From positions 1 through 64,000 of the forward strand of contig BQJC01000001.1 in assembly GCA_021604505.1 (NCBI GenBank): 64,000 bases of DNA, written 5' to 3'. The notes beneath the pieces were generated by a model. It did not search any database, was not told the origin of the DNA, and saw nothing but the letters and a program-made list of their open reading frames with translations. Source of the stretch: Nitrospinaceae bacterium. Its GTDB lineage: Bacteria; Nitrospinota; Nitrospinia; Nitrospinales; VA-1. Within the stretch, counting starts at the first letter, position 1, and the number at the start of each line of letters is the position of its first letter. This document shows, piece by piece, positions 3,842-17,735 of the stretch. The translations under genes and the position numbers were made by a program.

Positions 3842-4195
3842 TCATGTCGTCCGGTAAATGTATTTGACGCTCTCTACGGCAGGATAGTCGTTACGGAGTT
3901 TATCGAGGATAAGAGTCAAGGCGATAGATTGTTCATCCGTCATGCCGTCCCTTTCCGCGGCGACACATATCCCAACGCTGACCTCATCGAATTCTGAGTT
4001 ATAGGAACCCACCTGGCTTTGATGCCTTCCCATCAAGAGCGTTCCATCCCCTTCAATGATGTAATGAAACCCGATCTCTAAGATACCTTCCCGCAAGGCG
4101 TCTTTTTTTATTTGGTGGTAGTCGGTTTCGCGATTTCCGGTAAAATGAACCAAAACCGTTTTGGTTGCTTTCCTAAGTTTTTGTTCGTTTTTCAT
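3842..4195 (-). CDS. T7-lysozyme-like N-acetylmuramoyl-L-alanine amidase, apparently truncated
   Basis: The 117-residue product matches the amidase_2/PGRP fold: VLVHFTGN (first zinc His), IGFHYIIEGDGTLLMGR, VGSYNSE and SVGICVAAE line up with T7 lysozyme. The family ends with a second zinc His and a Cys, both absent here because the frame stops at VKYIYRTT. In another frame, starting at 3852, the DNA reads G-R-H-D-Q-K-N-C, which would restore such ligands, so a frameshift is possible. As written it should not bind zinc normally. It stands alone, without holin or phage genes. Confidence 0.65.
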   Translation of the reverse strand: MKNEQKLRKATKTVLVHFTGNRETDYHQIKKDALREGILEIGFHYIIEGDGTLLMGRHQSQVGSYNSEFDEVSVGICVAAERDGMTDEQSIALTLILDKLRNDYPAVESVKYIYRTT

Positions 4196-4348: not shown

Positions 4349-4384
4349 GAAATCAATCGAAGTTACAAATGAAAGGCAGTCTTG

Positions 4385-5827
4385 ATGATTGGGAAAATTT
4401 GTGAGGGCGGGTACAAAAGCACATGCGCGGTTCTTACCTTACTTTTGGTTTCATGCGCCACGGTAACGACGCCACCCATCGACGATGCGGCCAAGGTGGG
4501 AGACCTGACCAAGGTGAACCAGTTAATCCAGCAGGGAAACGACGTCAATGCAGAGACAGCGGACGGCAGTACAGCCCTCCATTCTTCCTCTGAGAAAGGC
4601 TATTTGGAGGTGGCCGAATCCCTCCTGGCCAATGGCGCCAGAGTCAATGCCAGAAATCGAAAAGGCGTCACACCGTTATACCTCGCGGCGTTGAATGGGC
4701 ACAGCGACCTTGCCGGGTTCTTGTTGTCCAAGGGCGCCGACATCAATACAAAAAATCTCTCAGGCGACACACCCTTGCACGTTGCCAGCCGCAATGGAAA
4801 GATGGATGTCGTCCGGCTCCTGGTCTTCAAGGGAGCGGATGTCAATCTTCTGAATAAGGACGGAGTGGCCCCGCTGCACTTTGCCGCCGGGCAAGGACGC
4901 ATGGCAGTCGTTAAGTTTCTTTTAAGCCAGGGGGCGAAGTTGGATGCTCTGGACAAAAATAAAAAACAACCGCTTCATTGGGCTTCCTGGAAGGGACATG
5001 CCGAAGTGGTCGACGTATTTTTACAAAAAGGGGCGAAGGTGGATGCGCCGGATAAATACGGTCTGACGCCGTTGAACCTGGCGGTACTTAACAACCACCT
5101 GGAAGTCGCAAAAGTGGTCGTCGCCAATGGGGCGAAGGTCAACCCCAAAGGAAGCGTTCCTTTGTTTTCAGCCGCTCGCAAGGGGTATTTCCCGATCGCA
5201 AAATTATTGGTCGAAAATGGCGCCAAGGTGAATGCCCGGGAAAAGGAAGGACCCACGCCCCTGCATTTTGCCGCCGAGGGGGGCCACCTGAAGGTGGTGA
5301 AACTCTTGTTGGACCATCGCGCCGAAGTCAATGCCAAAGACCTGGTGGATAACACACCGCTGCACAGCGCCGCCTCCGGAGGGCACACAGAAGTGATGGA
5401 GGTTCTCATTGCCAAAGGCGCGGATATCGGTGCGAAGGAAAAGGATGGGACAACCACCCTGCATCTGGCGGCCAAGGGAGGCCACAAAGCGGCCGTCAAG
5501 TTTTTGGTCGCTAAAAAAGTGAGTATCGAAGAGAAAGATCAGAAGGGCTTAACCCCTCTGCACCGGGCCGCCCAAAACGGACGGGAAGGGGTGGTCGAGA
5601 TATTGCTCGATGAAGGCGCCGCCATTGAATCAAAGGACAACGAAGGCTCCACGCCGCTCCACTTGGCAGCTGAGTGGGGCAGAAAATCGACGACGGAGCT
5701 TTTAATTAAAAAAGGCGCCAACTTGCAGGTAAAAAATAAAGCAGGAAAAACACCTGCCAATTTAGCCGCAAAAATGAACCACAAGAAGGTTGCGGAGTTG
5801 CTGGATTGGTACGCGAATAAAAAATAA
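4385..5827 (+). CDS. Ankyrin-repeat lipoprotein
   Basis: A 480-residue protein with an N-terminal lipoprotein signal ending L-L-V-S-C-A, then an almost uninterrupted solenoid of about 14 ankyrin units of 32-33 residues (D-G-x-T-P-L-H-x-A-A-x-x-G-H-x-x-V-V-x-x-L-L-x-x-G-A-x-V-N). The first unit is degenerate and the unit around residues 255-285 is short. Ankyrin arrays bind proteins; lipidation puts this one at the periplasmic face of a membrane. ATG at 4385 is preferred over the adjacent TTG at 4382. The repeat DNA is diverged between units. Confidence 0.85.
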   Translation: MIGKICEGGYKSTCAVLTLLLVSCATVTTPPIDDAAKVGDLTKVNQLIQQGNDVNAETADGSTALHSSSEKGYLEVAESLLANGARVNARNRKGVTPLYLAALNGHSDLAGFLLSKGADINTKNLSGDTPLHVASRNGKMDVVRLLVFKGADVNLLNKDGVAPLHFAAGQGRMAVVKFLLSQGAKLDALDKNKKQPLHWASWKGHAEVVDVFLQKGAKVDAPDKYGLTPLNLAVLNNHLEVAKVVVANGAKVNPKGSVPLFSAARKGYFPIAKLLVENGAKVNAREKEGPTPLHFAAEGGHLKVVKLLLDHRAEVNAKDLVDNTPLHSAASGGHTEVMEVLIAKGADIGAKEKDGTTTLHLAAKGGHKAAVKFLVAKKVSIEEKDQKGLTPLHRAAQNGREGVVEILLDEGAAIESKDNEGSTPLHLAAEWGRKSTTELLIKKGANLQVKNKAGKTPANLAAKMNHKKVAELLDWYANKK

Positions 5828-6709: not shown

Positions 6710-7201
6710 ATGAAAGCAATTTTCTTTTTCACGCTAACGGTTTTCTTTTGTTTTTTGGCAGCCATCCGGGTGCCGCAGGCGATGGCTTCCGAAGCGAGAG
6801 CCGTCAACATTCTTGAAGAAAAAAATATAGAGCAAAAAATCAAGGCGCTGAGTGATGAGTGGCAAAAGCAGTTTGTCGAGGCGGTCAACGACTTTTTGGA
6901 GCAGGAGTTGAATCGGTTGCAGGACAAAGAGACCGAACCCGGGGAAAGCCTCAGCCGTCAAATTACAAAATACGAAGAGGAAATAAAACGCGGAGCCGGC
7001 AATGTCGATGCCTATGTTTCCCTGGGAAAATTATATGATCAAAAAGGGGATGGAGCCAATGCCATCATTTATACGAAAAAAGCTGAGGAAATCTTTGTGA
7101 AAAATGAAGATATAAAAGGTGTCGCTGAGGCCAGAAGGAAGTTGCGTATTTATTTTGAGAAATATGACTACAAGCCGGAAGATTTTGAATTGGCCAAATA
7201 A
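6710..7201 (+). CDS. Exported TPR-like protein with Y-x-Y-x-PED-F C-terminal cap (paralogue 1)
   Basis: 163 residues. The signal peptide (MKAIFFFTLTVFFCFLAAIR) probably ends near A-M-A-S-E. A charged helical region (residues 35-80) is followed by one TPR-like unit (DAYVSLGKLYDQKGDGANAI) and a conserved tail: KKAEEIF, then GVAEARRKLR, FEKYDYKPEDF. The same tail occurs in the next gene and at 17235. Exported TPR proteins usually scaffold envelope complexes; nothing here fixes the partner. It is 43 bases upstream of the next paralogue, so the two are probably one transcript. Confidence 0.75.
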   Translation: MKAIFFFTLTVFFCFLAAIRVPQAMASEARAVNILEEKNIEQKIKALSDEWQKQFVEAVNDFLEQELNRLQDKETEPGESLSRQITKYEEEIKRGAGNVDAYVSLGKLYDQKGDGANAIIYTKKAEEIFVKNEDIKGVAEARRKLRIYFEKYDYKPEDFELAK

Positions 7202-7244
7202 CCAGAGCTCAGGGTTCGGGCTCCAAAAAACATTGAGGTTAAAA

Positions 7245-7781
7245 ATGAAAAAAATGCTTTACCTGTTGTTTGTTTCGTTAATGGTTTCCCTGCTTGGGGG
7301 AAATGTCGCAGTGGCCGAAGAGAAGAACGGTGCGGAGGAAAAACTTGAGGTCTTAAACAGACAAATATCTTTTTTTAATGAAAGGTTGGAGACGGAGCCG
7401 GACAATCCAAATTGGCATTTTCAGTTGGGAACAAAATATTATGAGTTGGGGCGCTTTTATGAAGAGAGAGCCGATCGTATTTTTTTATCCGGTGAGAATA
7501 AATCCGATATCAATAAAGCCCGCAGGTTATACGAGAGTTCCGTTGAGCACTTGGAGCATTCTTTGAGAATCCAGCCCGACAACGCCGGTGCGCATTTCAA
7601 TCTCAGCCTCACACATTTTGTGGATGGGGACGCAGAAAACGCGATTGTTCATATGAGAAAATCGGAACAGCTTTTTATGGCCTATCAGGATAAGAGAGGG
7701 GTGGCAAAAGCAAGAAAAGCGTTACGGGAATGGTTTGACCGTTATGGCTATCGCCCTGAGGATTTCCCACCGCGAAATTGA
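7245..7781 (+). CDS. Exported TPR protein with YGYRPEDF C-terminal cap (paralogue 2)
   Basis: Start chosen at 7245 because the ATG opens a signal peptide (MKKMLYLLFVSLMVSLLGG, cut near A-V-A-E) and has GAGG upstream; a longer frame from 7119 would overlap the previous gene. The 178-residue product has two TPR units (PNWHFQLGTKYYELGRFYEE and AGAHFNLSLTHFVDGDAENA) and the shared tail KSEQLF, RGVAKARKALR, YGYRPEDF. Same family as 6710 and 17235, probably by duplication. Confidence 0.78.
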   Translation: MKKMLYLLFVSLMVSLLGGNVAVAEEKNGAEEKLEVLNRQISFFNERLETEPDNPNWHFQLGTKYYELGRFYEERADRIFLSGENKSDINKARRLYESSVEHLEHSLRIQPDNAGAHFNLSLTHFVDGDAENAIVHMRKSEQLFMAYQDKRGVAKARKALREWFDRYGYRPEDFPPRN

Positions 7782-7828
7782 GTGTTTTCTTTCCCTGGCG
7801 TTCTGAATAAATAACTGAGCAGGATTTT

Positions 7829-8179
7829 ATGGCACTGGGACTGGCGCTGACTGGATTGGCAAAAAAGAAGGAGGGTGAAAAACTGTGGACTCTCGACACC
7901 GTTTCCTGGTGGGACGAGTTGGAGTTGATCAAAGACCCCCGGTTTGAAAAACTCGATCTTGGGCCGGATAAAATGGTTTACGAAGCCGTGTTGGCAGTCA
8001 AAGCCATTCTGGAATTGCATGAAAAATACGGAAAAAAATTTCTTGAAGTGTTTGATAAAGATCCCATGACGAAGCCTTATTATATAAAACGAAAAAAAAT
8101 GGTCGAGGATTTGGGAAACAAACTCAACGACCCAGAGCTTCACCTGGTAAGAGCCTGGGTGTTCGATTGGGATTATTAG
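7829..8179 (+). CDS. Hypothetical protein of 116 residues
   Basis: No family recognised. The protein starts MALGLALTGLAKKKEGEK and is rich in K, E, D and W, with DTVSWWDELELIKDP near the middle and a C-terminus of RAWVFDWDY. No signal peptide. GAGCAGG lies upstream of the ATG and the gene begins 47 bases after paralogue 2, so it probably belongs to the same transcript. Composition and reading-frame length support a real gene, but function is unknown. Confidence 0.6.
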   Translation: MALGLALTGLAKKKEGEKLWTLDTVSWWDELELIKDPRFEKLDLGPDKMVYEAVLAVKAILELHEKYGKKFLEVFDKDPMTKPYYIKRKKMVEDLGNKLNDPELHLVRAWVFDWDY

Positions 8180-8389
8180 AAAAGGATACCCGTTTCCCTC
8201 GACTGAAAAAGCCCTTATAAATTCCAGGGTTCCACAAAATCCCTGCCTTAACTTGCAATCCCGTACAGATTACAAAATCAGATTTCAAACCGCCTGCGGA
8301 TTGACGTCAGGGTTTTTAACATTTAACTAACATATTATTAACAAAAGAATCTGGATCAACTTATTGAAATCAAGTGTGAAAACTTGTGA

Positions 8390-8418
8390 TTGATAAATTT
8401 GAAAAATAATTGTATATA
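8390..8418 (+). promoter_or_regulatory. Putative sigma70-type promoter of TPR gene at 8452
   Basis: TTGATA (8390-8395), 17-base spacer, TATATA (8413-8418). The leader would be about 27 bases. The -10 lies within AATTGTATATAT, identical to the -10 region at 1060-1071. Confidence 0.55.
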
Positions 8419-8451
8419 TGGGCATCCCACAAACTGTTTTGAGTGAGACGC

Positions 8452-9150
8452 ATGGAAAAAACATTGCCCATGATTTTTATCGCATTTCTGTGTTTCGCTG
8501 GAATTTCCTATGCGCAGAATGACTTGTCCACAGGGGAAGTGAATGCGGAAGGTGAAGTTATTGAGGTTGATGAACCGGGTGAATTGGATAAGATTGACCA
8601 GTTGGAGCAGAATGTCAGCAATATGCTCAAGTTATTGGAGGATTTGGAAAAAGGCGAAGGCTTGAAGGAAAAATTAAAAGCCGTTGATCGGAAGAAAAAA
8701 GAATTGCCCGACCCCATGGATCAATTCGTCAAACCGGAAAAGAAGCCTGACAAAACGGTCACATCATCGCAAAAAAGAAACTCCAGAAAAAGTAAAGGGA
8801 AACAAAACATTGAAACCTCTAATGAGGTCGTCAAACTTCCTCCAGAAGGTCCCGGCAGTCATTTTCGTCTGGCGTTGGATTTTTGGCGTGCCCGAAAACT
8901 GGATAAAGCGATCCAGCATTTTAAAGAAGTGGTTCGGAGGGATCATGAAAACGCCCATGCTTATTGGAACCTTGGACTGATTTATGAAGAAAAAAAGGAC
9001 CATCTGCAGGCTATGGAAAACATAAAAAAAGCCGAAACCATTTACTTGAAATATGATTATACCTTGTACGCCCAGCAAGCCAGAAAGCGACTTGAAAAGT
9101 TGTCCAGGGAAAAAAATGCTCCATCAGAGAGCTCGCTTCTTTCAAATTAA
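8452..9150 (+). CDS. Exported protein with coiled-coil/charged linker and C-terminal TPRs
   Basis: From the ATG at 8452 (an in-frame GTG three codons earlier is less likely) the product is 232 residues. It has a signal peptide cut at S-Y-A/Q-N. Residues about 30-90 form a probable coiled coil (DKIDQLEQNVSNML), then a K/P/E-rich linker, then two TPR units (residues about 140-205: HFRLALDFWRARKLDKAI; AHAYWNLGLIYEEKKDHLQA). The tail KKAETIY is followed by QQARKRLEKL, recalling the Y-x-Y-x-PED group but lacking the PED cap. It may be a diverged member. Preceded by its own promoter. Confidence 0.75.
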   Translation: MEKTLPMIFIAFLCFAGISYAQNDLSTGEVNAEGEVIEVDEPGELDKIDQLEQNVSNMLKLLEDLEKGEGLKEKLKAVDRKKKELPDPMDQFVKPEKKPDKTVTSSQKRNSRKSKGKQNIETSNEVVKLPPEGPGSHFRLALDFWRARKLDKAIQHFKEVVRRDHENAHAYWNLGLIYEEKKDHLQAMENIKKAETIYLKYDYTLYAQQARKRLEKLSREKNAPSESSLLSN

Positions 9151-9193
9151 TGCCTAAACGGACCTGAGTCTGCCTTTGCAGCAGGATCCCCGC

Positions 9194-10435
9194 TCACCTT
9201 AAATTTTGCAAATTTTCGATCTTGCAACTCTGGTGATTGAGAACCGGATGCAGAGTAAAAAGAGGCGTGTTAAAGGGAACAAAGGCGGTGTCCACTCCAG
9301 GGCTCAATTGCAAATGTATGTTGACATAATTGAAGCTAAGCCCTTCCCGCCAAGCCCCCTGAGCCGATTGCACATAATTTTCCACCTTGTCGGAGGCGTG
9401 GCTTCGGGTCATCAGGCCGGACCCTCCTTGTAACCCGTATTCATAAAGATCCGGCGCTCCCTCAATCAAAAGGGAAACCACGGAAGCGTCGAACCAGACT
9501 TTGAAATGAGTGACGATTTGAAAAAAGGGACCGAGCGTTCCTGAACGCTCCATGACGGCAACTGGATAGACGAACCCGGGGGGAACCTCCGCTGAAGTTT
9601 CCATCATTGGATTTTTAAATTCCCGTTCCTTGACTTCCGACGCGGATACAAATAAAAGATGGGGATCGTCCATGGAGATATCCAAAACCTGCCCGTCCTG
9701 ATGGCTGATCAGCTTTCCCATTTCATAAGCCAGGGGAAACGAATAGCCTTTTTTTGCATAAAAAATTCGGATGATGGCGTCCAGGGCGTTATCCGGCTTG
9801 CGGCTAATTTTTAGGTCAAACGGCAGCATCAGATGAAACGCATTGGTCCTGGAGTTCATGAAGGGGGCACAGGCGCCTTCAAATTCTTTTTGCACTGCGG
9901 GGTTGCCCGGTTCAAATTTTCGCGGTGAACCGGAAAAATGTTGGGCGTTTTTTGCTTTCCGGGTCATGCCGAACTTCTCCTGGTAATAGGTCGTCGCCCG
10001 TTTTTGAGCGATGTCCAGGAAGTATTCGGGAACGTCCGTTTCCACGATCAGGCGTTGTTTGGCCAACTCCGGTGGGGAAGACCTTTTTCCCGGAGAAGGG
10101 CGCATGGCCTTGCCGTATATCTCCAATTCCGCCTGGGTCTTTTGTATGTCTTGATCCAGATGTCGGTCCAATTCAGAATTGAAATAATCAGATCTGCAGA
10201 AAACCTGTTTGGCTTTTAGTAATAACTCGAGCTTTTGGTGATAGCGCTTGGGTTCCGGGGCCAACGCCTGAATGGTTGCCATATAAAGGCTGAACTGTTC
10301 ATCGGGAGACAGGCCGATGGCATCCAGATCCTGCTCTTTGATAAAATTGAGTGCCAGGGGGCCGAAAGCCTCCTCGCGGCGAATGTTCAGAGTCAAAAGA
10401 TAATTGAGATGGGCGCGGCCTTCCTTTAAATCCAT
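9194..10435 (-). CDS. Hypothetical protein of 413 residues
   Basis: A long frame with good codon structure but no domain I recognise. No signal peptide or membrane segments; probably cytoplasmic. The first 130 residues are helical and charged (MDLKEGRAHLNYLL). The C-terminal half looks like a mixed alpha/beta domain (NAFHLMLPFDLKIS, YSFPLAYEMGKLI, PGFVYPVAVMERSGTLGPFF, YEYGLQGGSGL). The gene stands alone, divergent from the FAH-family gene. Cysteines are few, so a metal cluster is unlikely. Confidence 0.7.
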   Translation of the reverse strand: MDLKEGRAHLNYLLTLNIRREEAFGPLALNFIKEQDLDAIGLSPDEQFSLYMATIQALAPEPKRYHQKLELLLKAKQVFCRSDYFNSELDRHLDQDIQKTQAELEIYGKAMRPSPGKRSSPPELAKQRLIVETDVPEYFLDIAQKRATTYYQEKFGMTRKAKNAQHFSGSPRKFEPGNPAVQKEFEGACAPFMNSRTNAFHLMLPFDLKISRKPDNALDAIIRIFYAKKGYSFPLAYEMGKLISHQDGQVLDISMDDPHLLFVSASEVKEREFKNPMMETSAEVPPGFVYPVAVMERSGTLGPFFQIVTHFKVWFDASVVSLLIEGAPDLYEYGLQGGSGLMTRSHASDKVENYVQSAQGAWREGLSFNYVNIHLQLSPGVDTAFVPFNTPLFTLHPVLNHQSCKIENLQNLR

Positions 10436-10681
10436 TGTTGCCGGGTACTTTTTCAGGTTAAAAATGGCACAATATACCGCAATATCCCAGGCGGATAAAT
10501 AGTTTTCTTACACAAGGTAGGATATTTCCTATATCTAGAATTGACCGCTATTTATCGACAGAGGGATAATTAATTTCAGGTTAAAATGAGGGTGTCCTGA
10601 TGATGAAGGTCCCTTCTATTCGGTTGGCTGACGGTGTCCCAGGGTTCCCTGCCGACGCAATAACAATTTGCAAGGAAAATC

Positions 10682-11335
10682 ATGTCTCCGGTTATTCAGA
10701 TTGCAGGTCAAAGGGTCGAGCCTGCACGGGTTTTTTGCGTCGGCAAAAATTACCGCAAACACATTCAGGAGCTTGACAGTGAAGTTCCGGATCAGCCGGT
10801 CATTTTTATGAAACCGGTTTCCAGCCTTGTTGCGCCGCAAGAAAAAATACGCCTTCCCACGCACGGCGCCTGCCTGCATCATGAGGTCGAGCTGGTGGTA
10901 CTGGTCGGACGGGTCGGGAAAAATATCAGCGAATCCGATGCCCCAACCCACATTGCCGGACTCTCCGTGGGCGTCGATCTCACCTTGAGAGATGTGCAAT
11001 CGTCCTTAAAGAAAAAAGGTCTGCCCTGGGAGATGGCCAAAGCCTTCGATCAGAGCGCGCCTTTAGGGTCGTTCGTTCCACTCGATGATTCGATGGATCT
11101 AAATAACATTTCTTTTTTCTGTGAAGTCAACGGAGTGCGTCGTCAGCAGGGAAATTCGGGGCAGATGATTTATTCCATTTCAAATATCATTCAATTTTTA
11201 AGTGGTATCTGGGAATTACTTCCGGGGGATTTGATTTATACAGGCACACCGTCAGGGGTCGGCCCCGTTGGTTCAGGGGATACCTTGAGGATTGCTGGCG
11301 AAGGAATGGGAGACTTCAGTTGGGAATTTTTATAA
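10682..11335 (+). CDS. Fumarylacetoacetate-hydrolase (FAH) family protein, FAHD1-like
   Basis: 217 residues, the short single-domain FAH class. The motifs CVGKNYRKHIQE, FMKPVSSL, HHEVELVVLVG (metal-binding Glu pair), GVDLTLRDVQ (metal Asp), KAFDQSAPLG and PGDLIYTGTPSGVGPV are all present. FAHD1-type proteins are Mg2+-dependent acylpyruvate hydrolases or oxaloacetate decarboxylases; exact substrate cannot be told. AAGGAAA precedes the ATG. Oxaloacetate would fit the carbon metabolism encoded elsewhere in the window, but this is inference. Confidence 0.88.
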   Translation: MSPVIQIAGQRVEPARVFCVGKNYRKHIQELDSEVPDQPVIFMKPVSSLVAPQEKIRLPTHGACLHHEVELVVLVGRVGKNISESDAPTHIAGLSVGVDLTLRDVQSSLKKKGLPWEMAKAFDQSAPLGSFVPLDDSMDLNNISFFCEVNGVRRQQGNSGQMIYSISNIIQFLSGIWELLPGDLIYTGTPSGVGPVGSGDTLRIAGEGMGDFSWEFL

Positions 11336-11360
11336 ATTCCCAACTGAAGTTTTATAAAAT

Positions 11361-11975
11361 TTAAAGGGAAGTGGTGATCACTTGAATCTCCTGTTTCAGA
11401 TAGCTTCTTAAGATATTTTCAATGGCGCGAAGCGTCCCCGTCGCAGAGCTTGGGCAACTGCCGCACGCCCCTTGATAACGAATCTTGAGTGTGTTGTCTT
11501 CAAAATCCAGAACCGTGACCCCCCCGCCGTCGTTGGCCAACGCCGGTCGTACCGTTTCATCAAATAGAGCGTCGATAATTTCCGCTTTTTCCGGATCGGA
11601 CAGATTAGGGAAATCGATCTTGTCCAGGTTTTCCAAAATGGAGGATTCGTCCTTTTCCACCGTTTTAGGATCCTGCCCGTCATAAAAGGTCAAGTATTCT
11701 TCAATGATATCTTCTACGGCTTCAACGAGAACATCCAGATTATGCGAGGGCAGAAAGGAGACCGTGACAAAATTTTCCGATAAATAAATGCTCTGCACGT
11801 TTCCGAGAGCAAACACCGCCCGGATAAAATTATCCCCTGGAGCGTCTTCTTCGGAAGTGATGGACTTGGCTCCCGCAGCGATGACCGGGGCGTTCATTAT
11901 ATATTTGAAGGCATTCGGATTGGGCGTCATTTCCGTGTCCAATACCTCAAAACTTTTCTCTAAATTTTCATTCAT
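11361..11975 (-). CDS. nfu: NfuA/Nfu1-type iron-sulfur cluster carrier
   Basis: 204 residues from the ATG at 11975 (chosen because AAGGA lies six bases upstream; the ATG two codons earlier has no spacing to it). The N-terminal Nfu_N domain starts TEMTPNPNAFKYIMNAPV; the C-terminal NifU-like domain contains ALANDGGGVTVLDFED and CGSCPSS, whose two cysteines bind a bridging 4Fe-4S cluster in a dimer. This is the Nfu1 layout that hands Fe-S clusters to client proteins. It lies downstream of an Rrf2 regulator on the same strand, which suggests Fe-S homeostasis as a common theme. Confidence 0.92.
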   Translation of the reverse strand: MNENLEKSFEVLDTEMTPNPNAFKYIMNAPVIAAGAKSITSEEDAPGDNFIRAVFALGNVQSIYLSENFVTVSFLPSHNLDVLVEAVEDIIEEYLTFYDGQDPKTVEKDESSILENLDKIDFPNLSDPEKAEIIDALFDETVRPALANDGGGVTVLDFEDNTLKIRYQGACGSCPSSATGTLRAIENILRSYLKQEIQVITTSL

Positions 11976-12102
11976 GACCATTCCTTTTAACGAGAGGGGT
12001 TTTTCATTGCCTAGTCTTGGATGGAATCAGCCGGGTTTCGGTTCAGGAAAAAAACTTCTCTCCTCTCAACGCTCTTGAACCATCGCCCTTGGTTTCCTTC
12101 CG

Positions 12103-12537
12103 CTACATATGTTGCGCCGCTTCGCAGAGGGGTTTGCTCAGCGTCGTTTCTTTCAACAGATCTCCAATAGAGGATTCTTGATACGCTTTTTCAATCATAT
12201 GGATGGAATCGTTGAGCCGCTTATGAAGCGGGCATAAATTGTGGCCGTGTTGTTTGAGGCCCAGCGGACAACTGTCTATATGTTGAAGCGGGTCCACCGC
12301 GTTGATGACCTCCAAAAGCGACAATTCCCCTGCCGGTTTGCGAAGGGAAAACCCGCCGTGCAGTCCGCGGCGTGAGTGCACGATTTTGGCCCTGCCAAGG
12401 GCCTGTAGCACCTTAGAGAGGTAACTGCCGGGAACTTTAGTGATTTCGGCTATTCTCCCCGTGGTCAATGCGGTTTGCGGATAACTTGCCAGGCAAACCA
12501 CCGATCGAAGCGCATATTCTGCTGTCTGGGATATCAT
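12103..12537 (-). CDS. Rrf2-family transcriptional regulator (NsrR/IscR-like)
   Basis: 144 residues: winged-helix start MISQTAEYALRSVVCLA, GRIAEITKVPGSYLSKVLQALG recognition region, SRRGLHGGFSLRKPA wing, and a cysteine set in SCPLGLKQHGHNLCPLH typical of Rrf2 members that bind an Fe-S cluster. NsrR senses NO and IscR senses Fe-S status. It is divergent from a RIC/YtfE di-iron gene, a classic NsrR target, so an NO or oxidative-stress sensor is the best reading. The shared intergenic region carries inverted repeats. Confidence 0.88.
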   Translation of the reverse strand: MISQTAEYALRSVVCLASYPQTALTTGRIAEITKVPGSYLSKVLQALGRAKIVHSRRGLHGGFSLRKPAGELSLLEVINAVDPLQHIDSCPLGLKQHGHNLCPLHKRLNDSIHMIEKAYQESSIGDLLKETTLSKPLCEAAQHM

Positions 12538-12554
12538 TTTGTCATTTCTTCTTT

Positions 12555-12637
12555 AATTGGATATCAATATCTTGACATCCAATTATAACACAGCTATATT
12601 AAAAGTAAATAGGATAAAAAGGTCTAGTTATCCAATT
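12555..12637. promoter_or_regulatory. Candidate Rrf2 operator cluster (AATTGGAT boxes)
   Basis: Three copies of the octamer ATCCAATT or its complement: 12555-12562 (reverse), 12577-12584 and 12630-12637 (forward). The first two form an inverted repeat, and the second lies in the -35/spacer of the RIC promoter, where binding would block transcription. Second and third are 53 bases apart, about five helical turns. Binding is inferred. Confidence 0.5.
12572..12600 (+). promoter_or_regulatory. Promoter of RIC gene
   Basis: TTGACA (12572-12577), 17-base spacer, TATATT (12595-12600): near-consensus. The leader to the ATG at 12701 is about 95 bases. Confidence 0.65.
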
Positions 12638-12700
12638 ATTGAGAATGGCTCATTATGTTGGGGAAAAGCCAATATCGAAAAAATTTTACAGGAGGCCGTC

Positions 12701-13429
12701 ATGATCATGACAAATTTGGACATTCATTCCCGGATCAACGATTTCACCGCGGAGGACATGGCTCGGGCAAAAGTGTTGGAAGAGTTGGGAATCGACGCCT
12801 GTTGCGGTGGAAACAAATCCTTGGCCGAGGCCTGCGGCGAGAAAGGTCTCGACCCGGAGGTTGTCTTGAAAACACTGGTTCAGGTTAGGGAGCGAGCGGA
12901 TTCCGAAAAGGAGGAGGAAGTCGATTGGTCGGAAGAAAATTTGACCGACCTTGTGACCCACATCGAAGAGACTCACCATGCTTATTTGAAGAAGGTTTTC
13001 CCGCAATTGTCCTCTCTGATTGAGAAGGTGGTGAAAGCGCATGGTGCGCGGCATACTGAACTGTCGGATTTAAAGAGAGTGTTTGCGCTTCTGAGGGCCG
13101 ATCTGGAACAACACATGATGAAGGAGGAGCGAGTGCTGTTTCCCATGGTCCGCAAACTCGAATCCGGGGCGGGGTCCCAGGAATTTCATTGCGGTACGTT
13201 ACAGGGCCCCATTGGCGTTATGCAGGCAGAGCACCAGAGGGCCGATGCCTTGCAGGATGAACTACGCAAAATCTCAAATAACTTCACCCCGCCTGAGGAC
13301 GGATGCAAAACCTACCGTCTTTTGATGGAGGGGTTGGAAAATCTGGACGCCGACCTCAATGTTCATATTTATAAGGAAAACGAGGTCTTGTTTCCCCGCG
13401 TTCTCGATGCGGAAACTCATCTCCAATAA
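12701..13429 (+). CDS. RIC (YtfE/ScdA) di-iron protein for iron-sulfur cluster repair
   Basis: 242 residues from the ATG at 12701, which has AGGAGG five bases upstream; a 48-residue upstream extension has no support. The ScdA_N domain includes LGIDACCGGNKSLAEAC (residues about 24-40), followed by a hemerythrin-like four-helix bundle with iron ligands in EETHHAY, LEQHMMKEERVLFP, QAEHQRAD and VHIYKENEVLFP. RIC proteins restore Fe-S clusters damaged by nitric oxide or peroxide. Divergent Rrf2 gene and operator boxes point to derepression by such stress. Confidence 0.92.
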   Translation: MIMTNLDIHSRINDFTAEDMARAKVLEELGIDACCGGNKSLAEACGEKGLDPEVVLKTLVQVRERADSEKEEEVDWSEENLTDLVTHIEETHHAYLKKVFPQLSSLIEKVVKAHGARHTELSDLKRVFALLRADLEQHMMKEERVLFPMVRKLESGAGSQEFHCGTLQGPIGVMQAEHQRADALQDELRKISNNFTPPEDGCKTYRLLMEGLENLDADLNVHIYKENEVLFPRVLDAETHLQ

Positions 13430-13516
13430 TCCCTGAGAAGTAAGCCGTTTTTCATTGTGCAGATAGCACTGCTAGGACGGGACCAATAGAACCTGGGTAT
13501 TTTAAGGAACGGCTCC

Positions 13517-14269
13517 TCAGTCAAACTCGCAACCGAATCCATGAAAATAAGTCAGGTTGGGGTCGTTGCATTGGCAGTTTAATGTCTCGAAATTGAAGAA
13601 AGCGTCTCCAATGCACACGGGCGCTACTATTGGGATAATATTAACAAAATCCAATGTGTCACCCAGAATTTTTTCCTGGCTGTTGCTATTGGCGTCCATA
13701 TAAGATTCGAGGAACTTGTGTCCTGATAAATCACCGATCGACACATTGGCCGTATTGGCAGGTAACGGCTCTGGCAAGTTGAGAAAATTTTTGAACTGTC
13801 GAACCGCAAGAATAACCAGATCCAGAGTCAACGTTGTATGGGGACCCTCTCCTGCAACAAAATTGTCGGGATTGGCGACCGATACAATTTTAAAATTGCT
13901 GGCGTCGTTGAGATTAGCATGTATTGCGTTGGAAAAAAGGTTGCCTTGGGAATGAGAAATCTGGATGAATTTTATATCGGCATTCACCAGCCCATTATTA
14001 TAAGCCGCAACAAGGTTTGTCACTGCCGGATTGGTTGTCAAGGCTAATTCGTCAATTTCAGCGGCGATTTCTTGAAACTTTTCCCGGAAGGCGTCGGACA
14101 TTATAGTGAGACCGAATAAAGTCTTCCAAAACTCGGACGCGTCGGTCACCACATCCTGAATCAGCGCTTCGAACAAATCATTCAGGGGACCTTCCGTGGG
14201 ATTATACTGAACGCCAAAGGAAAGACCTTTACATTGCGAATCTGGAATAGATTGATTAATGAAGCCCAC
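13517..14269 (-). CDS. Exported alpha/beta-hydrolase, catalytic part (separated from its signal peptide by an in-frame stop)
   Basis: 250 residues from a GTG at 14269. IQISHSQGN (nucleophile Ser107), VANPDN (Asp135) and LSGHKF (His184) form a plausible lipase/esterase triad in the right order. Four C-terminal cysteines (PVCIGD, LNCQCND, FGCEFD) suit an exported, disulphide-bonded enzyme, yet this part has no signal. The reading frame upstream is open, except for one TAA at 14300-14302, to a signal peptide at 14491. The two pieces are therefore probably one gene broken by a nonsense change. No good ribosome site precedes the GTG. Confidence 0.6.
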   Translation of the reverse strand: MGFINQSIPDSQCKGLSFGVQYNPTEGPLNDLFEALIQDVVTDASEFWKTLFGLTIMSDAFREKFQEIAAEIDELALTTNPAVTNLVAAYNNGLVNADIKFIQISHSQGNLFSNAIHANLNDASNFKIVSVANPDNFVAGEGPHTTLTLDLVILAVRQFKNFLNLPEPLPANTANVSIGDLSGHKFLESYMDANSNSQEKILGDTLDFVNIIPIVAPVCIGDAFFNFETLNCQCNDPNLTYFHGFGCEFD

Positions 14270-14299
14270 ATCGAGTTCGATATTTCTGCTCGAAAGTTC

Positions 14300-14491
14300 T
14301 TAGCGAACCAGTCTTCGTATTTCGATTTTAGCATTTTGAGCCTCTAACTCAGTAGTATCGATGCCATTTCCAAAGTTGATTTGAGTTAGTGTGCCGAGGC
14401 ATTCAGTTCCCACAGGGGCTTGTGCAAAAGCCGATACACAAGAGGCGGACAGGAAAATGAAAAACAATAGAAGAGGTTTTAGCAATTTCAT
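14300..14491 (-). CDS. N-terminal signal-peptide piece of the interrupted hydrolase
   Basis: 63 residues. MKLLKPLLLFFIFLSASC then VSAFAQAP is a signal peptide with cleavage likely after A-F-A, followed by a short mature part with one Cys and ending EIRRLVR at TAA (14300-14302). The frame continues after the stop directly into the hydrolase at 14269. If read through, the joined gene would span 14491-13517, 325 codons. It sits 42 bases downstream of the Ca-loop protein and is probably in the same transcript. Confidence 0.6.
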   Translation of the reverse strand: MKLLKPLLLFFIFLSASCVSAFAQAPVGTECLGTLTQINFGNGIDTTELEAQNAKIEIRRLVR

Positions 14492-14533
14492 ATTTATACG
14501 TCCTCTGTAGATTTAATTTGCAAGGATTGTGGA

Positions 14534-15355
14534 TTAGTTCGGAAGACTGTCAGGATCAAAGTCACAATTGACTTTGAGATGCGATTGGTCTTTTCGCTCG
14601 ATACCAAAGTCAACAAGTCGCCCCGCCAGTTGGCCGTTGTATTTTATATAAGCACGGCTTCTCTCGATGGTATTCATCGTTTCTGCAACGAGACCTAATG
14701 AGGGGTCCCTTAGCCTGATATTTAGAACCCATTCTAGAAAATCTCTGCATTTATATGCTCGATTTTTCTCAAGGCTATGCTGAATAGAAAGATTTTTATC
14801 ATCTGCATCGATCAAGGATTGTTGCAAAATTTTTACGTGTTGGTTCAGCAAGGCCCGGACTTTGGCCGAATCGGTGTAGGTCAAGGCGATGTAGCGCTGA
14901 AGGTCGTCCCGCACTCCGTCGTTGTCTGAATCGATTCCCTCTAAGGTGGCTTTTCCCGCTTCGCCCGGATCGGGCGGCAATCCCATATTGTTCTCCATGA
15001 TGAGAATCAGATTCCGGGCCTCGGCGGTCAATAAGTCCGCGGAGGCTTGGGTGATATTTTCTGGAGTGTGCTTCCCGGTGGTTTTGATGAATTTATTGAG
15101 CTTTTTGATAGCCTTCGACCATTTACCTTTGTTGACTTCTTTTTCACTTTTAAATACATTGCGGCAAAGCTTCTTTTGCGGAGGGTGGCCGGCATGATCG
15201 AGAACCAATTGCCCCAGGTGTTGGAAAAAGGGCGTCAGGTTTTCACATTTTTCCGTTGGGTCCGCTTGCGCCGCTATCGGCAACAGAAGTGGAAACATCA
15301 AAAATACAATCGGCAGTAACCGCAACGGAATCCATTTCTTCGTGTGATTTTCCAT
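14534..15355 (-). CDS. Exported protein with one D-rich calcium loop, unknown function
   Basis: 273 residues. Signal peptide cut near A-A-Q-A-D (residue about 31). Residues 142-151 read D-S-D-N-D-G-V-R-D-D, a thrombospondin-type-3/dockerin-like Ca2+-binding loop. The rest is mainly helical, with a pair of K-rich helices (about 70-95) and cysteines at about 37, 64, 209 and 267 that may form disulphides. Same-strand neighbour of the interrupted hydrolase, which may act with it outside the cytoplasm. No named family recognised. Confidence 0.7.
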   Translation of the reverse strand: MENHTKKWIPLRLLPIVFLMFPLLLPIAAQADPTEKCENLTPFFQHLGQLVLDHAGHPPQKKLCRNVFKSEKEVNKGKWSKAIKKLNKFIKTTGKHTPENITQASADLLTAEARNLILIMENNMGLPPDPGEAGKATLEGIDSDNDGVRDDLQRYIALTYTDSAKVRALLNQHVKILQQSLIDADDKNLSIQHSLEKNRAYKCRDFLEWVLNIRLRDPSLGLVAETMNTIERSRAYIKYNGQLAGRLVDFGIERKDQSHLKVNCDFDPDSLPN

Positions 15356-15614
15356 GGTATTTCCTCCAATGGTTGGTAAAGGTCCTTCAAGTGTGAAGAA
15401 AGTGTTGGGATGATTTGCCGTGAAGCGCTTAAAAGTTTAAGCAGCAAAAAACGGTTTGTGCAAAATCAAGAGGAACCTCAGGAAGCTTCCCTAATATTTT
15501 ATCCAATCGTCCGGTGATTTAAAAACTATAATAATGTGTCGTGAATCCATGTGTATAATGAGTGATATTTTTAAAGTCTACCGTTGATTTTTCATAGATT
15601 AATTCATTCGGCCC

Positions 15615-16082
15615 ATGAGCGAAGTTGAAACATTTGCAGAGGGGGTTCGTAAAGACCCTAAGAACCCGGAAGCGCATTTCCAGCTTGGGAAGGCGTATTA
15701 TCAGACGGGGAAAAACACCGAAGCGTTGGAAGCGTTGCAGGCATCCATTCGCCTGAAACCGGACCATGCAAAAGCGCATTTTTATCTGGCCAAGGTTTTC
15801 GATATGTTGAAACGGTACGAAGAAATGATCGATGCGTTTCAGGAAGCGGCCTACCTTGCCCCCGAATGGGAGGAAACGCATTACAACCTGGGGCTGGCCT
15901 TCCTTGTTCTGGGACGGGCCGAGGATGGGATCGCTCCATTTGCGGAGGCCATCCGTCTAAAGCCCGATTATGCCGAAGCCCATAACGGGTTGAGCCTGGT
16001 TTACGGAATGACTGGCCAGCAGGAAAAATCAGAAATACATTATAAAAAAGCCGGTGAACTGGACCCTAGATTTAAGAAATAG
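15615..16082 (+). CDS. Cytoplasmic TPR protein
   Basis: 155 residues and almost entirely four classic 34-residue TPR units: P-E-A-H-F-Q-L-G-K-A-Y-Y-Q-T-G-K-x-x-E-A-L, K-A-H-F-Y-L-A, E-T-H-Y-N-L-G-L-A-F, and A-E-A-H-N-G-L-S, each ending I-R-L-K-P-D or similar. No signal peptide, so an adaptor in the cytoplasm. No neighbour suggests its partner. The C-terminus (KKAGELDPRFKK) is an ordinary TPR end without the PED cap. Confidence 0.8.
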   Translation: MSEVETFAEGVRKDPKNPEAHFQLGKAYYQTGKNTEALEALQASIRLKPDHAKAHFYLAKVFDMLKRYEEMIDAFQEAAYLAPEWEETHYNLGLAFLVLGRAEDGIAPFAEAIRLKPDYAEAHNGLSLVYGMTGQQEKSEIHYKKAGELDPRFKK

Positions 16083-16131
16083 AAGCCCCTGGGTGATGCC
16101 GGTTTCCGCTGATTAATTCATCTTCCAATGC

Positions 16132-17115
16132 TCAATATTTTCCGCGAATGAGAGGCGCCGAACGGTTTTCATAGAATTCCTTGAGTTTGCGGTGAAGCTC
16201 TTCTGAAAGAGGAGCAAGGTCGCTGGCTGAACAGTTGGTCTCAACCTGCTCTGGAGTCGTGGCTCCCGGAATCACCACGGTCACGGCATCGAAATCCAGA
16301 ATCCAGCGCATGGCCATTTGCGCCAGAGTGATTCCTTCAGGAACCAGGGATTTGAGATCGTCCGACAATTCGACCCCTTTGGAAAAGGGAATTCCTGAAA
16401 AGGTTTCCCCGACATTGAACTGTTCGCCGTTGCGGTTGTAGTTGCGATGATCGTTTTCTGGAAAAATGGCGTTGGCCAGAAACTTCCCCGACAACAGGCC
16501 GGATGCCAGAGGCAGGCGGATGATTAAAGAAACGTTCTGGGCCTTGGCCCGGTCGAACAGGGCCGTGATCGGTTTTTGCCGAAAAATGTTGAAAATGATC
16601 TGCAACGAGGAGACCCCTTCCTGCTCAAGGCAGATCAGTGCTTCTTCCATGGACTCCACACTCAGGCCAAAATTTTTTATTTTCCCTTCTTTCTTGAGTA
16701 GACGCAGCCATTCAAACAGGTCTCCCTGTTTTAACACCTCCGTGGGCAGGCAGTGAACCTGAGTCAGGTCGAGAGCCTCCACACCCAGTCGTTTAAGTGA
16801 GTTTTCCGTGTGCAGGCGAAACTGCGTGAGAGAAACGTTTTCCGCTCCACCGGGTTCGGGAAAACGGCCGAGTTTCGTGGCCACAAATAGGTTTCCGGCA
16901 TATGCCTTGATAAACCGGCGGATTCTGGTTTCACTCAAGCCTTTCCCATAGACATCTGCGGTGTCGAAAAAATTCACTCCGCAATCCACCGCCTGACCGA
17001 GAATACGTTCCGCCGTTTTATCATCCACGTCTCCCCAGTCAGCACCCAACTGCCAGGTCCCAAGACCGACCTCCGAGACCGATGGTTCCCCGTCGGCAAA
17101 TGTTCTATATTTCAT
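16132..17115 (-). CDS. Aldo/keto reductase
   Basis: 327 residues, usual family length. The catalytic tetrad is visible: Asp and Tyr in FFDTADVYGKG, Lys in VATKLGRF, and His in LTQVHCLP. The C-terminal NADPH-binding region has VVIPGATTPEQVETN. The N-terminus VSEVGLGTWQLG is typical of the YajO/AKR11-14-like bacterial group. Substrate unknown; family members reduce aldehydes and ketones with NADPH. Monocistronic, convergent with the TPR gene. Confidence 0.9.
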   Translation of the reverse strand: MKYRTFADGEPSVSEVGLGTWQLGADWGDVDDKTAERILGQAVDCGVNFFDTADVYGKGLSETRIRRFIKAYAGNLFVATKLGRFPEPGGAENVSLTQFRLHTENSLKRLGVEALDLTQVHCLPTEVLKQGDLFEWLRLLKKEGKIKNFGLSVESMEEALICLEQEGVSSLQIIFNIFRQKPITALFDRAKAQNVSLIIRLPLASGLLSGKFLANAIFPENDHRNYNRNGEQFNVGETFSGIPFSKGVELSDDLKSLVPEGITLAQMAMRWILDFDAVTVVIPGATTPEQVETNCSASDLAPLSEELHRKLKEFYENRSAPLIRGKY

Positions 17116-17234
17116 ATTTTCTCCTTACAGGCCAGCGATTCGCCGCCCTTGAAAGCGTGTCGAGACTTGACCTGCGTCAGTGATTCATTAAATAATATTA
17201 TTTATAAATAACCTGTAACGTTTTATTGCATTCA

Positions 17235-17735
17235 ATGAGTAATCGCAAAAGTTTTTTGAATAACTTGAGAATGGACCGGCGGCTCATCCTGTTTTGGGTT
17301 TTGTCTTTCTTGACGGGCTGGTATGGATTTTCAACGAAGTCGCATGCGAATGAGGTGGGGTTTAAACAATACCGTGAAAACGTTTTAAACCAGATTGAAG
17401 AATATGAGAAAGCTCTGGAAACGGATCCCTCGGACCCTCAAATTCATTTTCAACTGGGGTTGTCTTACATGGCTCTGGGAAGGCATGAGAAAGAGATCGA
17501 TGAATATCTGGAAGCGATTCGGCTGAAGCCCGACTTTGCAGAGGCGCACTTCAATCTGGCCCAGGCCTATGATCTTCTGAAAGACGGGGTTCATTCGATC
17601 CGGCACATGCTTCGGGCCCGGCAGATTTATTCGGCTCACAGGAACCACCGGGGAATACGGACCAGCCAAAGACAATTGAGAGCGCTGTATGATAAATATG
17701 GTTTCCAGCCCGAAGATGTGATCGGGCCAAAATAA
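17235..17735 (+). CDS. Exported TPR protein with YGFQPED C-terminal cap (paralogue 3)
   Basis: 166 residues from the ATG at 17235; an ATG at 17271 (MDRRLILFWVLSFLTGW) is a fair alternative start that gives a shorter signal peptide, cut near S-H-A-N-E. Two TPRs follow (PQIHFQLGLSYMALGRHEKE, AEAHFNLAQAYDLLKDG) and then the family tail: RARQIY, RGIRTSQRQLR, YDKYGFQPEDV. This is 10 kb from paralogues 1 and 2. A 66-residue gene lies 27 bases downstream. Confidence 0.75.
   Translation: MSNRKSFLNNLRMDRRLILFWVLSFLTGWYGFSTKSHANEVGFKQYRENVLNQIEEYEKALETDPSDPQIHFQLGLSYMALGRHEKEIDEYLEAIRLKPDFAEAHFNLAQAYDLLKDGVHSIRHMLRARQIYSAHRNHRGIRTSQRQLRALYDKYGFQPEDVIGPK

What the first reader, a model, noticed from the sequence alone, without database searches (positions are those of the whole stretch)
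6710..17735. A dispersed family of exported TPR proteins with a shared Y-x-Y-x-PED C-terminal cap
The proteins at 6710, 7245 and 17235 are exported, have one or two TPR units and end with the same unusual tail: a helix of the kind K-A-E-x-I/L-F/Y, then G-V-A-x-A-R-x-x-L-R, then a Y-G/D-Y/F-x-PED end. A fourth protein at 8452 has a related tail without the PED. I know no named domain for this. Conservation in the C-terminus rather than the TPRs suggests a fixed docking signal, with variable N-terminal parts.
Basis: partly seen in the sequence, partly recalled or inferred. Interest (0 to 1): 0.72.

Follow-up and report, generated by a model that had tools for sequence, protein, structure and literature searches.

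The report
Shared end cap on Nitrospinales TPR proteins
Three small exported proteins, and many relatives across one order of bacteria (Nitrospinales), end in the same conserved 50-residue piece, which is most likely a lineage-specific version of the familiar helix that closes off a TPR repeat stack rather than a docking tag.

Summary
The proteins at 6710, 7245 and 17235 share a C-terminal ~50-residue unit (terminal TPR helix B, one further helix, then Y-x-Y/F-x-PEDF), and 8452 carries a weaker copy without PED. A profile from those three finds two more full copies in the genome (E 5e-27, 7e-23). No Pfam or NCBIfam model covers the unit. It is almost confined to the window's order (Nitrospinales): 63 of 64 genomes, against 1 of 13 from the rest of the class and 0 of 71 outside the phylum. 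The 'exported docking signal' reading does not hold in general. The unit also ends proteins without signal peptide (31 of 31 in one order-wide group), sits inside a TPR-trypsin lipoprotein, closes long TPR proteins, and loses PED in most orthologues of 17235 while the helices stay. AlphaFold2 gives a confident TPR hairpin, a third helix and a short PED turn: the architecture of a TPR C-terminal capping helix. I judge it a lineage-specific TPR end cap, inherited with duplicated TPR genes. In the other short exported proteins D-F (of PEDF) or a conservative change is kept in 34 of 34, so a binding role there is not excluded.

The parts
6710..7201 (+). Exported 163-aa protein (group A): signal sequence, helical segment, one TPR hairpin, cap
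   Evidence: AF2; order-wide orthologues
7049..7198 (+). Cap unit of the 6710 protein (50 residues; PEDF at 7175-7186)
   Evidence: helices H115-131, H135-152, H156-159
7245..7781 (+). Exported 178-aa protein (group B): TPR-like long helices, TPR hairpin, cap
   Evidence: AF2
7629..7778 (+). Cap unit of the 7245 protein (PEDF at 7755-7766)
   Evidence: H130-146, H150-167, 171-173
8452..9150 (+). Exported 232-aa TPR protein with divergent cap lacking PED
   Evidence: profile match 8905-9099 E 1.4e-9; likely orthologues with a PED-less cap in L069 and L070
17235..17735 (+). Exported 166-aa protein (group C): two TPRs and cap
17583..17732 (+). Cap unit of the 17235 protein (PEDV at 17709-17720); PED lost in most of its orthologues
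7829..8179 (+). Conserved 116-aa ORF of unknown function between the tandem pair and 8452, same strand (probable operon member, no cap)
   Evidence: related ORFs (cluster c28) at the same place in G026, G027 and G028, kinship to the window ORF read by eye; no Pfam match for the G027 ORF

Best explanation
The tail is a C-terminal capping unit of TPR stacks that is specific in sequence to the order Nitrospinales. It consists of helix B of the last TPR, a further helix that takes the place of helix A of a next repeat and covers the exposed face of the last hairpin, and a short Y-x-Y/F-x-PEDF turn that ends it where helix B of that next repeat would begin. It spread by duplication of whole genes or 3' ends of TPR genes, which is why it sits on several paralogous groups with different N-terminal parts, in the periplasm and in the cytoplasm. 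The 6710 and 7245 proteins are then small periplasmic TPR adaptors, whose variable N-terminal parts and TPR surface, rather than the cap, would carry partner specificity. Shown: sequence family, distribution, architectures, predicted helices. Inferred: packing as a cap, spread by duplication, adaptor role.
For: AF2 models with high local confidence: 6710 protein H99-112, H115-131, H135-152, H156-159 (block pLDDT 93-98 over residues 101-160); 7245 protein mean pLDDT 90.6, H114-126, H130-146, H150-167, then a turn at 171-173. The Foldseek PDB lists are dominated by TPR folds: designed CTPR, SrU_0103 (2kcl/3ma5), LGN, MamA. The tail profile's best PDB match is a helix pair of the designed helical protein 2n8i (E 0.0018). 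Weak profile-profile match of the cap to TPR_12-type repeats in the register of helix A (score 15.2, reached by about 1 of 60 column shuffles). Same unit on exported proteins (34/34 in the A/B/D-type set), on a group without hydrophobic N-terminus (31/31) and on long multi-TPR proteins; internal in a TPR-trypsin lipoprotein and near the end of a cytochrome c-TPR protein. PED is dispensable: exact PEDF in 1 of 7 group C and 11 of 31 group E proteins while the helices persist. Known precedent: the SGTA TPR domain ends in a capping helix that packs on the second helix of the last TPR and lines the concave face together with the A helices (PMC4683186).
Against: Y-x-PEDF is the best conserved segment (66% between paralogues), and D plus a hydrophobic residue at positions 45-46 holds in 34 of 34 short exported proteins of the A/B/D type, more than a plain cap seems to need. 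Conserved polar residues H8, R29, R33 and K38 are not obviously explained by burial. The profile match to TPR helix A is weak.
Confidence: 0.72

Rival explanations
1. The cap, and PEDF in particular, is a fixed docking surface for one conserved partner, with variable N-terminal parts as payload.
For: PEDF is the most conserved segment; D plus a hydrophobic residue kept in 34/34 short exported A/B/D-type proteins; conserved charged residues H8, R29, R33, K38.
Against: Same unit in cytosolic-looking and exported proteins; internal before a trypsin domain; PED lost in most 17235 orthologues and several group E orthologues with the helices unchanged; no neighbouring gene is shared by all capped genes.
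Confidence: 0.13
2. The shared tail only reflects recent duplication: all capped proteins are young paralogues and the tail has no special role.
For: 6710 and 7245 are adjacent on the same strand with a 43-base gap; the tandem pair is conserved in G026, G027 and G028.
Against: Groups A and E each have orthologues across families of the order, so the duplications are old; N-terminal parts have diverged beyond alignment while the cap stays recognisable.
Confidence: 0.1
3. The tail is a C-terminal sorting or processing signal for exported proteins, in the manner of PEP-CTERM or T9SS C-terminal domains.
For: It is C-terminal in nearly all copies, mostly with 0-12 residues after PEDF in the short groups.
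Against: Present on proteins without signal sequence (31/31 group E); retained internally; no NCBIfam sorting-signal match on the tail.
Confidence: 0.04

Closest known systems
TPR C-terminal capping helix (e.g. SGTA helix 7; end helix of designed CTPR proteins)
   Same: One extra helix after the last TPR hairpin, in the position of the next helix A (PMC4683186; predicted helices here)
   Different: Here the sequence is conserved between paralogues and ends in Y-x-Y/F-x-PEDF; in SGTA the capping helix is less conserved than the TPRs in fungi
SrU_0103 small TPR protein (PDB 2kcl, 3ma5)
   Same: First in the Foldseek list of the 6710 model: small TPR domain of about 90 residues
   Different: 21-22% identity, E 9e-3 only; whether it has a comparable turn after the last helix was not examined
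TPR_12 and LGN-type TPR repeats
   Same: Register D..vA.A...L..Y...G of the cap helix resembles helix A of TPR_12 repeats; LGN gives the highest query TM-scores in the 7245 list (0.57-0.62)
   Different: The unit is truncated after the start of helix B, and no Pfam TPR model matches it when scanned alone
NCBIfam NF047558 TPR end-of-group domain
   Same: A named C-terminal end of TPR proteins; weak hit on 17235 (17.3 bits against a cut-off of 32)
   Different: Below cut-off, matches only residues 104-136, not seen on the other three

Membership tests
TPR domain with C-terminal capping helix | At least one TPR hairpin directly before the unit | tested here: met
   Pfam TPR matches above cut-off in 7245, 8452 and 17235; in 6710 below cut-off (17.9 against 25.7 bits) but with a predicted helical hairpin
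TPR domain with C-terminal capping helix | An extra helix after helix B of the last TPR | tested here: met
   H135-152 and H150-167 in the AF2 models
TPR domain with C-terminal capping helix | The extra helix packs on helix B of the last repeat | not testable with these tools
   Model coordinates were not returned; only secondary structure, pLDDT and Foldseek matches
   0 of 31 group E proteins have a hydrophobic N-terminus
   D plus hydrophobic residue at 45-46: 34/34 in A/B/D-type, 21/31 in E, 2/7 in C
NCBIfam NF047558 TPR end-of-group domain | Score above the curated cut-off | tested here: not met
   17.3 against 32 bits, and only for 17235
PEP-CTERM/T9SS-type sorting tails | On exported proteins only, with the tail at the very end | tested here: not met
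   Members without signal sequence and one internal copy

The most novel reading that the evidence does not exclude
In the exported groups the strictly kept PEDF end is a recognition element for a periplasmic partner shared by several Nitrospinales TPR adaptors, while the cytosolic copies with decaying PED use the cap only structurally.
Probability: 0.13. Interest if true: 0.55.

Novelty: new variant of a known kind. Interest (0 to 1): 0.33.

Why it matters
It gives a family definition for many otherwise unnamed TPR proteins of the order Nitrospinales and a sequence trait nearly confined to that order. It is a case of a TPR end cap kept recognisable as a lineage trait while the rest of the protein diverges. 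It also replaces a tempting docking-signal reading with one that fits all the architectures found.

Tried and rejected
Pfam scan of 25 isolated tails: no TPR or other consistent family. Solved-structure search with the tail: only designed proteins, weak. tblastn of the 7245 protein against plasmids: weak hits only, E 0.1 or worse. Apparent in-frame stops inside the tail match in several loci were followed up as possible readthrough: the ones read are ordinary ends, proteins finishing at or just after PEDF with the match running past the stop. A paper search for Nitrospina with tetratricopeptide listed nothing that appeared to concern this family (titles and abstracts only).

Full report
What is there. 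The 6710, 7245 and 17235 proteins align without gaps over their last 81 residues; 8452 is a more distant relative without PED. All four begin with a plausible signal sequence. Pfam sees generic TPRs in 7245, 8452 and 17235 and only a sub-threshold TPR in 6710; no specific model covers the tail. A profile of the three tails finds two further complete copies in the same genome: C3:142288 (exported, KYEYQPEDFEARKGFLWRIFN) and C2:717445 (126 aa, no signal sequence, KFGFQPEDF). It also finds weaker copies at the ends of longer TPR proteins.

How far it reaches. In the phylum search with a five-row tail profile, 64 of 77 genomes match. With a 25-row profile and 71 genomes from outside the phylum added, my count from the table is 63 of 64 genomes of the window's order, 1 of 13 from the rest of the class (weak, E 1.9e-5) and 0 of 71 outside the phylum. 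A degenerate-pattern scan of one genome for each of 84,980 species returned 160 stretches, of which 14 encode relatives, all titled Nitrospinota, Nitrospinia, Nitrospinaceae or Nitrospina; that scan uses one strict pattern and can miss divergent copies.

Groups. From the fetched loci I collected 86 tail-bearing frames and clustered them. Group A (6710-like): exported, a helical N-terminal segment, one TPR, cap; found in all four families of the order. Group B (7245-like): the genus of the window and a neighbouring genus, next to A in the loci seen. Group C (17235-like). Group D (C3:142288-like), with an extra end of about 8 residues. Group E: short, no signal sequence in 31 of 31, spread across families, in many genomes beside a small DUF4325 (STAS-like) gene and near genes that look like TrmL, HflX and UvrD (the last three named by eye). 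A further cytosolic-looking group of about 160 aa ends ...SPEDFE. Long proteins include a cytochrome c-TPR-cap protein and a lipoprotein with TPR-cap-trypsin order, where the cap with intact PEDF is internal.

Anatomy. Column conservation over 81 tails: G2, A5, I6, H8, A12, L15, F16, D/N21, A28, R29, L32, R33, aromatic 35, 36 and 39, K38, P43, E44, D45, F46. AF2 models are confident through the unit: TPR helix A, TPR helix B, a third helix of 18 residues, then a short turn at PED. Foldseek lists are dominated by TPR folds. By inspection, L32, Y36 and G40 fall where TPR helix A has L7, Y11 and G15, and PEDF falls near where helix B would start. A profile comparison with TPR_12 repeats agrees with that register but is weak. 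This is the arrangement of a TPR C-terminal capping helix, as described for SGTA (PMC4683186).

Docking signal or cap. The cap explanation accounts for use on both sides of the membrane, use in long solenoids, internal use, and retention of the helices where PED is lost. In group C exact PEDF is kept in 1 of 7, while the preceding helices are little changed; in group E in 11 of 31. What it does not explain is why D plus a hydrophobic residue holds in 34 of 34 of the other short exported proteins, and why Y-x-PEDF is the best conserved stretch between paralogues (66% against 24-40% elsewhere in the aligned part). I therefore leave a partner-binding role in those groups open at low probability.

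Limits. Signal sequences were judged by hydropathy, not by a trained predictor. Counts are of fetched sequences, not of independent events, and the fetched set was chosen from the best profile matches. Model coordinates could not be inspected. No tree was built. The outgroup sample with the full profile is 71 genomes.

Noticed in passing
L140:10445-10822 and neighbours (G000:C2 near 717445): The cytosolic capped 125-aa protein follows a small DUF4325 (STAS-like) gene on the same strand in about ten of the loci read, beside genes that look like TrmL, HflX and UvrD; the pair could be a small signalling module.
   Followed up: partly
L058 (G038:C21): Lipoprotein with TPRs, the cap, and then a trypsin-like peptidase domain (Trypsin_2 E 9e-31).
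   Followed up: partly
L117 (G004:C42): Secreted cytochrome c domain fused to TPRs ending near the cap.
   Followed up: partly
window 7829-8179: Conserved 116-aa ORF between the tandem pair and 8452, with related ORFs at the same place in three related genomes and no Pfam match.
   Followed up: partly
window 4382-5827: Probable lipoprotein of about 12 ankyrin repeats in the same conserved gene block.
   Followed up: no
window 3842-4195: Amidase_2-like protein just below the Pfam cut-off, without an obvious signal sequence, conserved in the same block.
   Followed up: no
window 12103-13429: Rrf2-like regulator (named by eye) divergent from a ScdA-type protein with a hemerythrin domain, next to a NifU-like protein.
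   Followed up: no
L139:10635-13481: 948-aa protein made almost wholly of TPR_12-like repeats, directly upstream of the group D capped gene on the same strand, conserved in three genomes.
   Followed up: no
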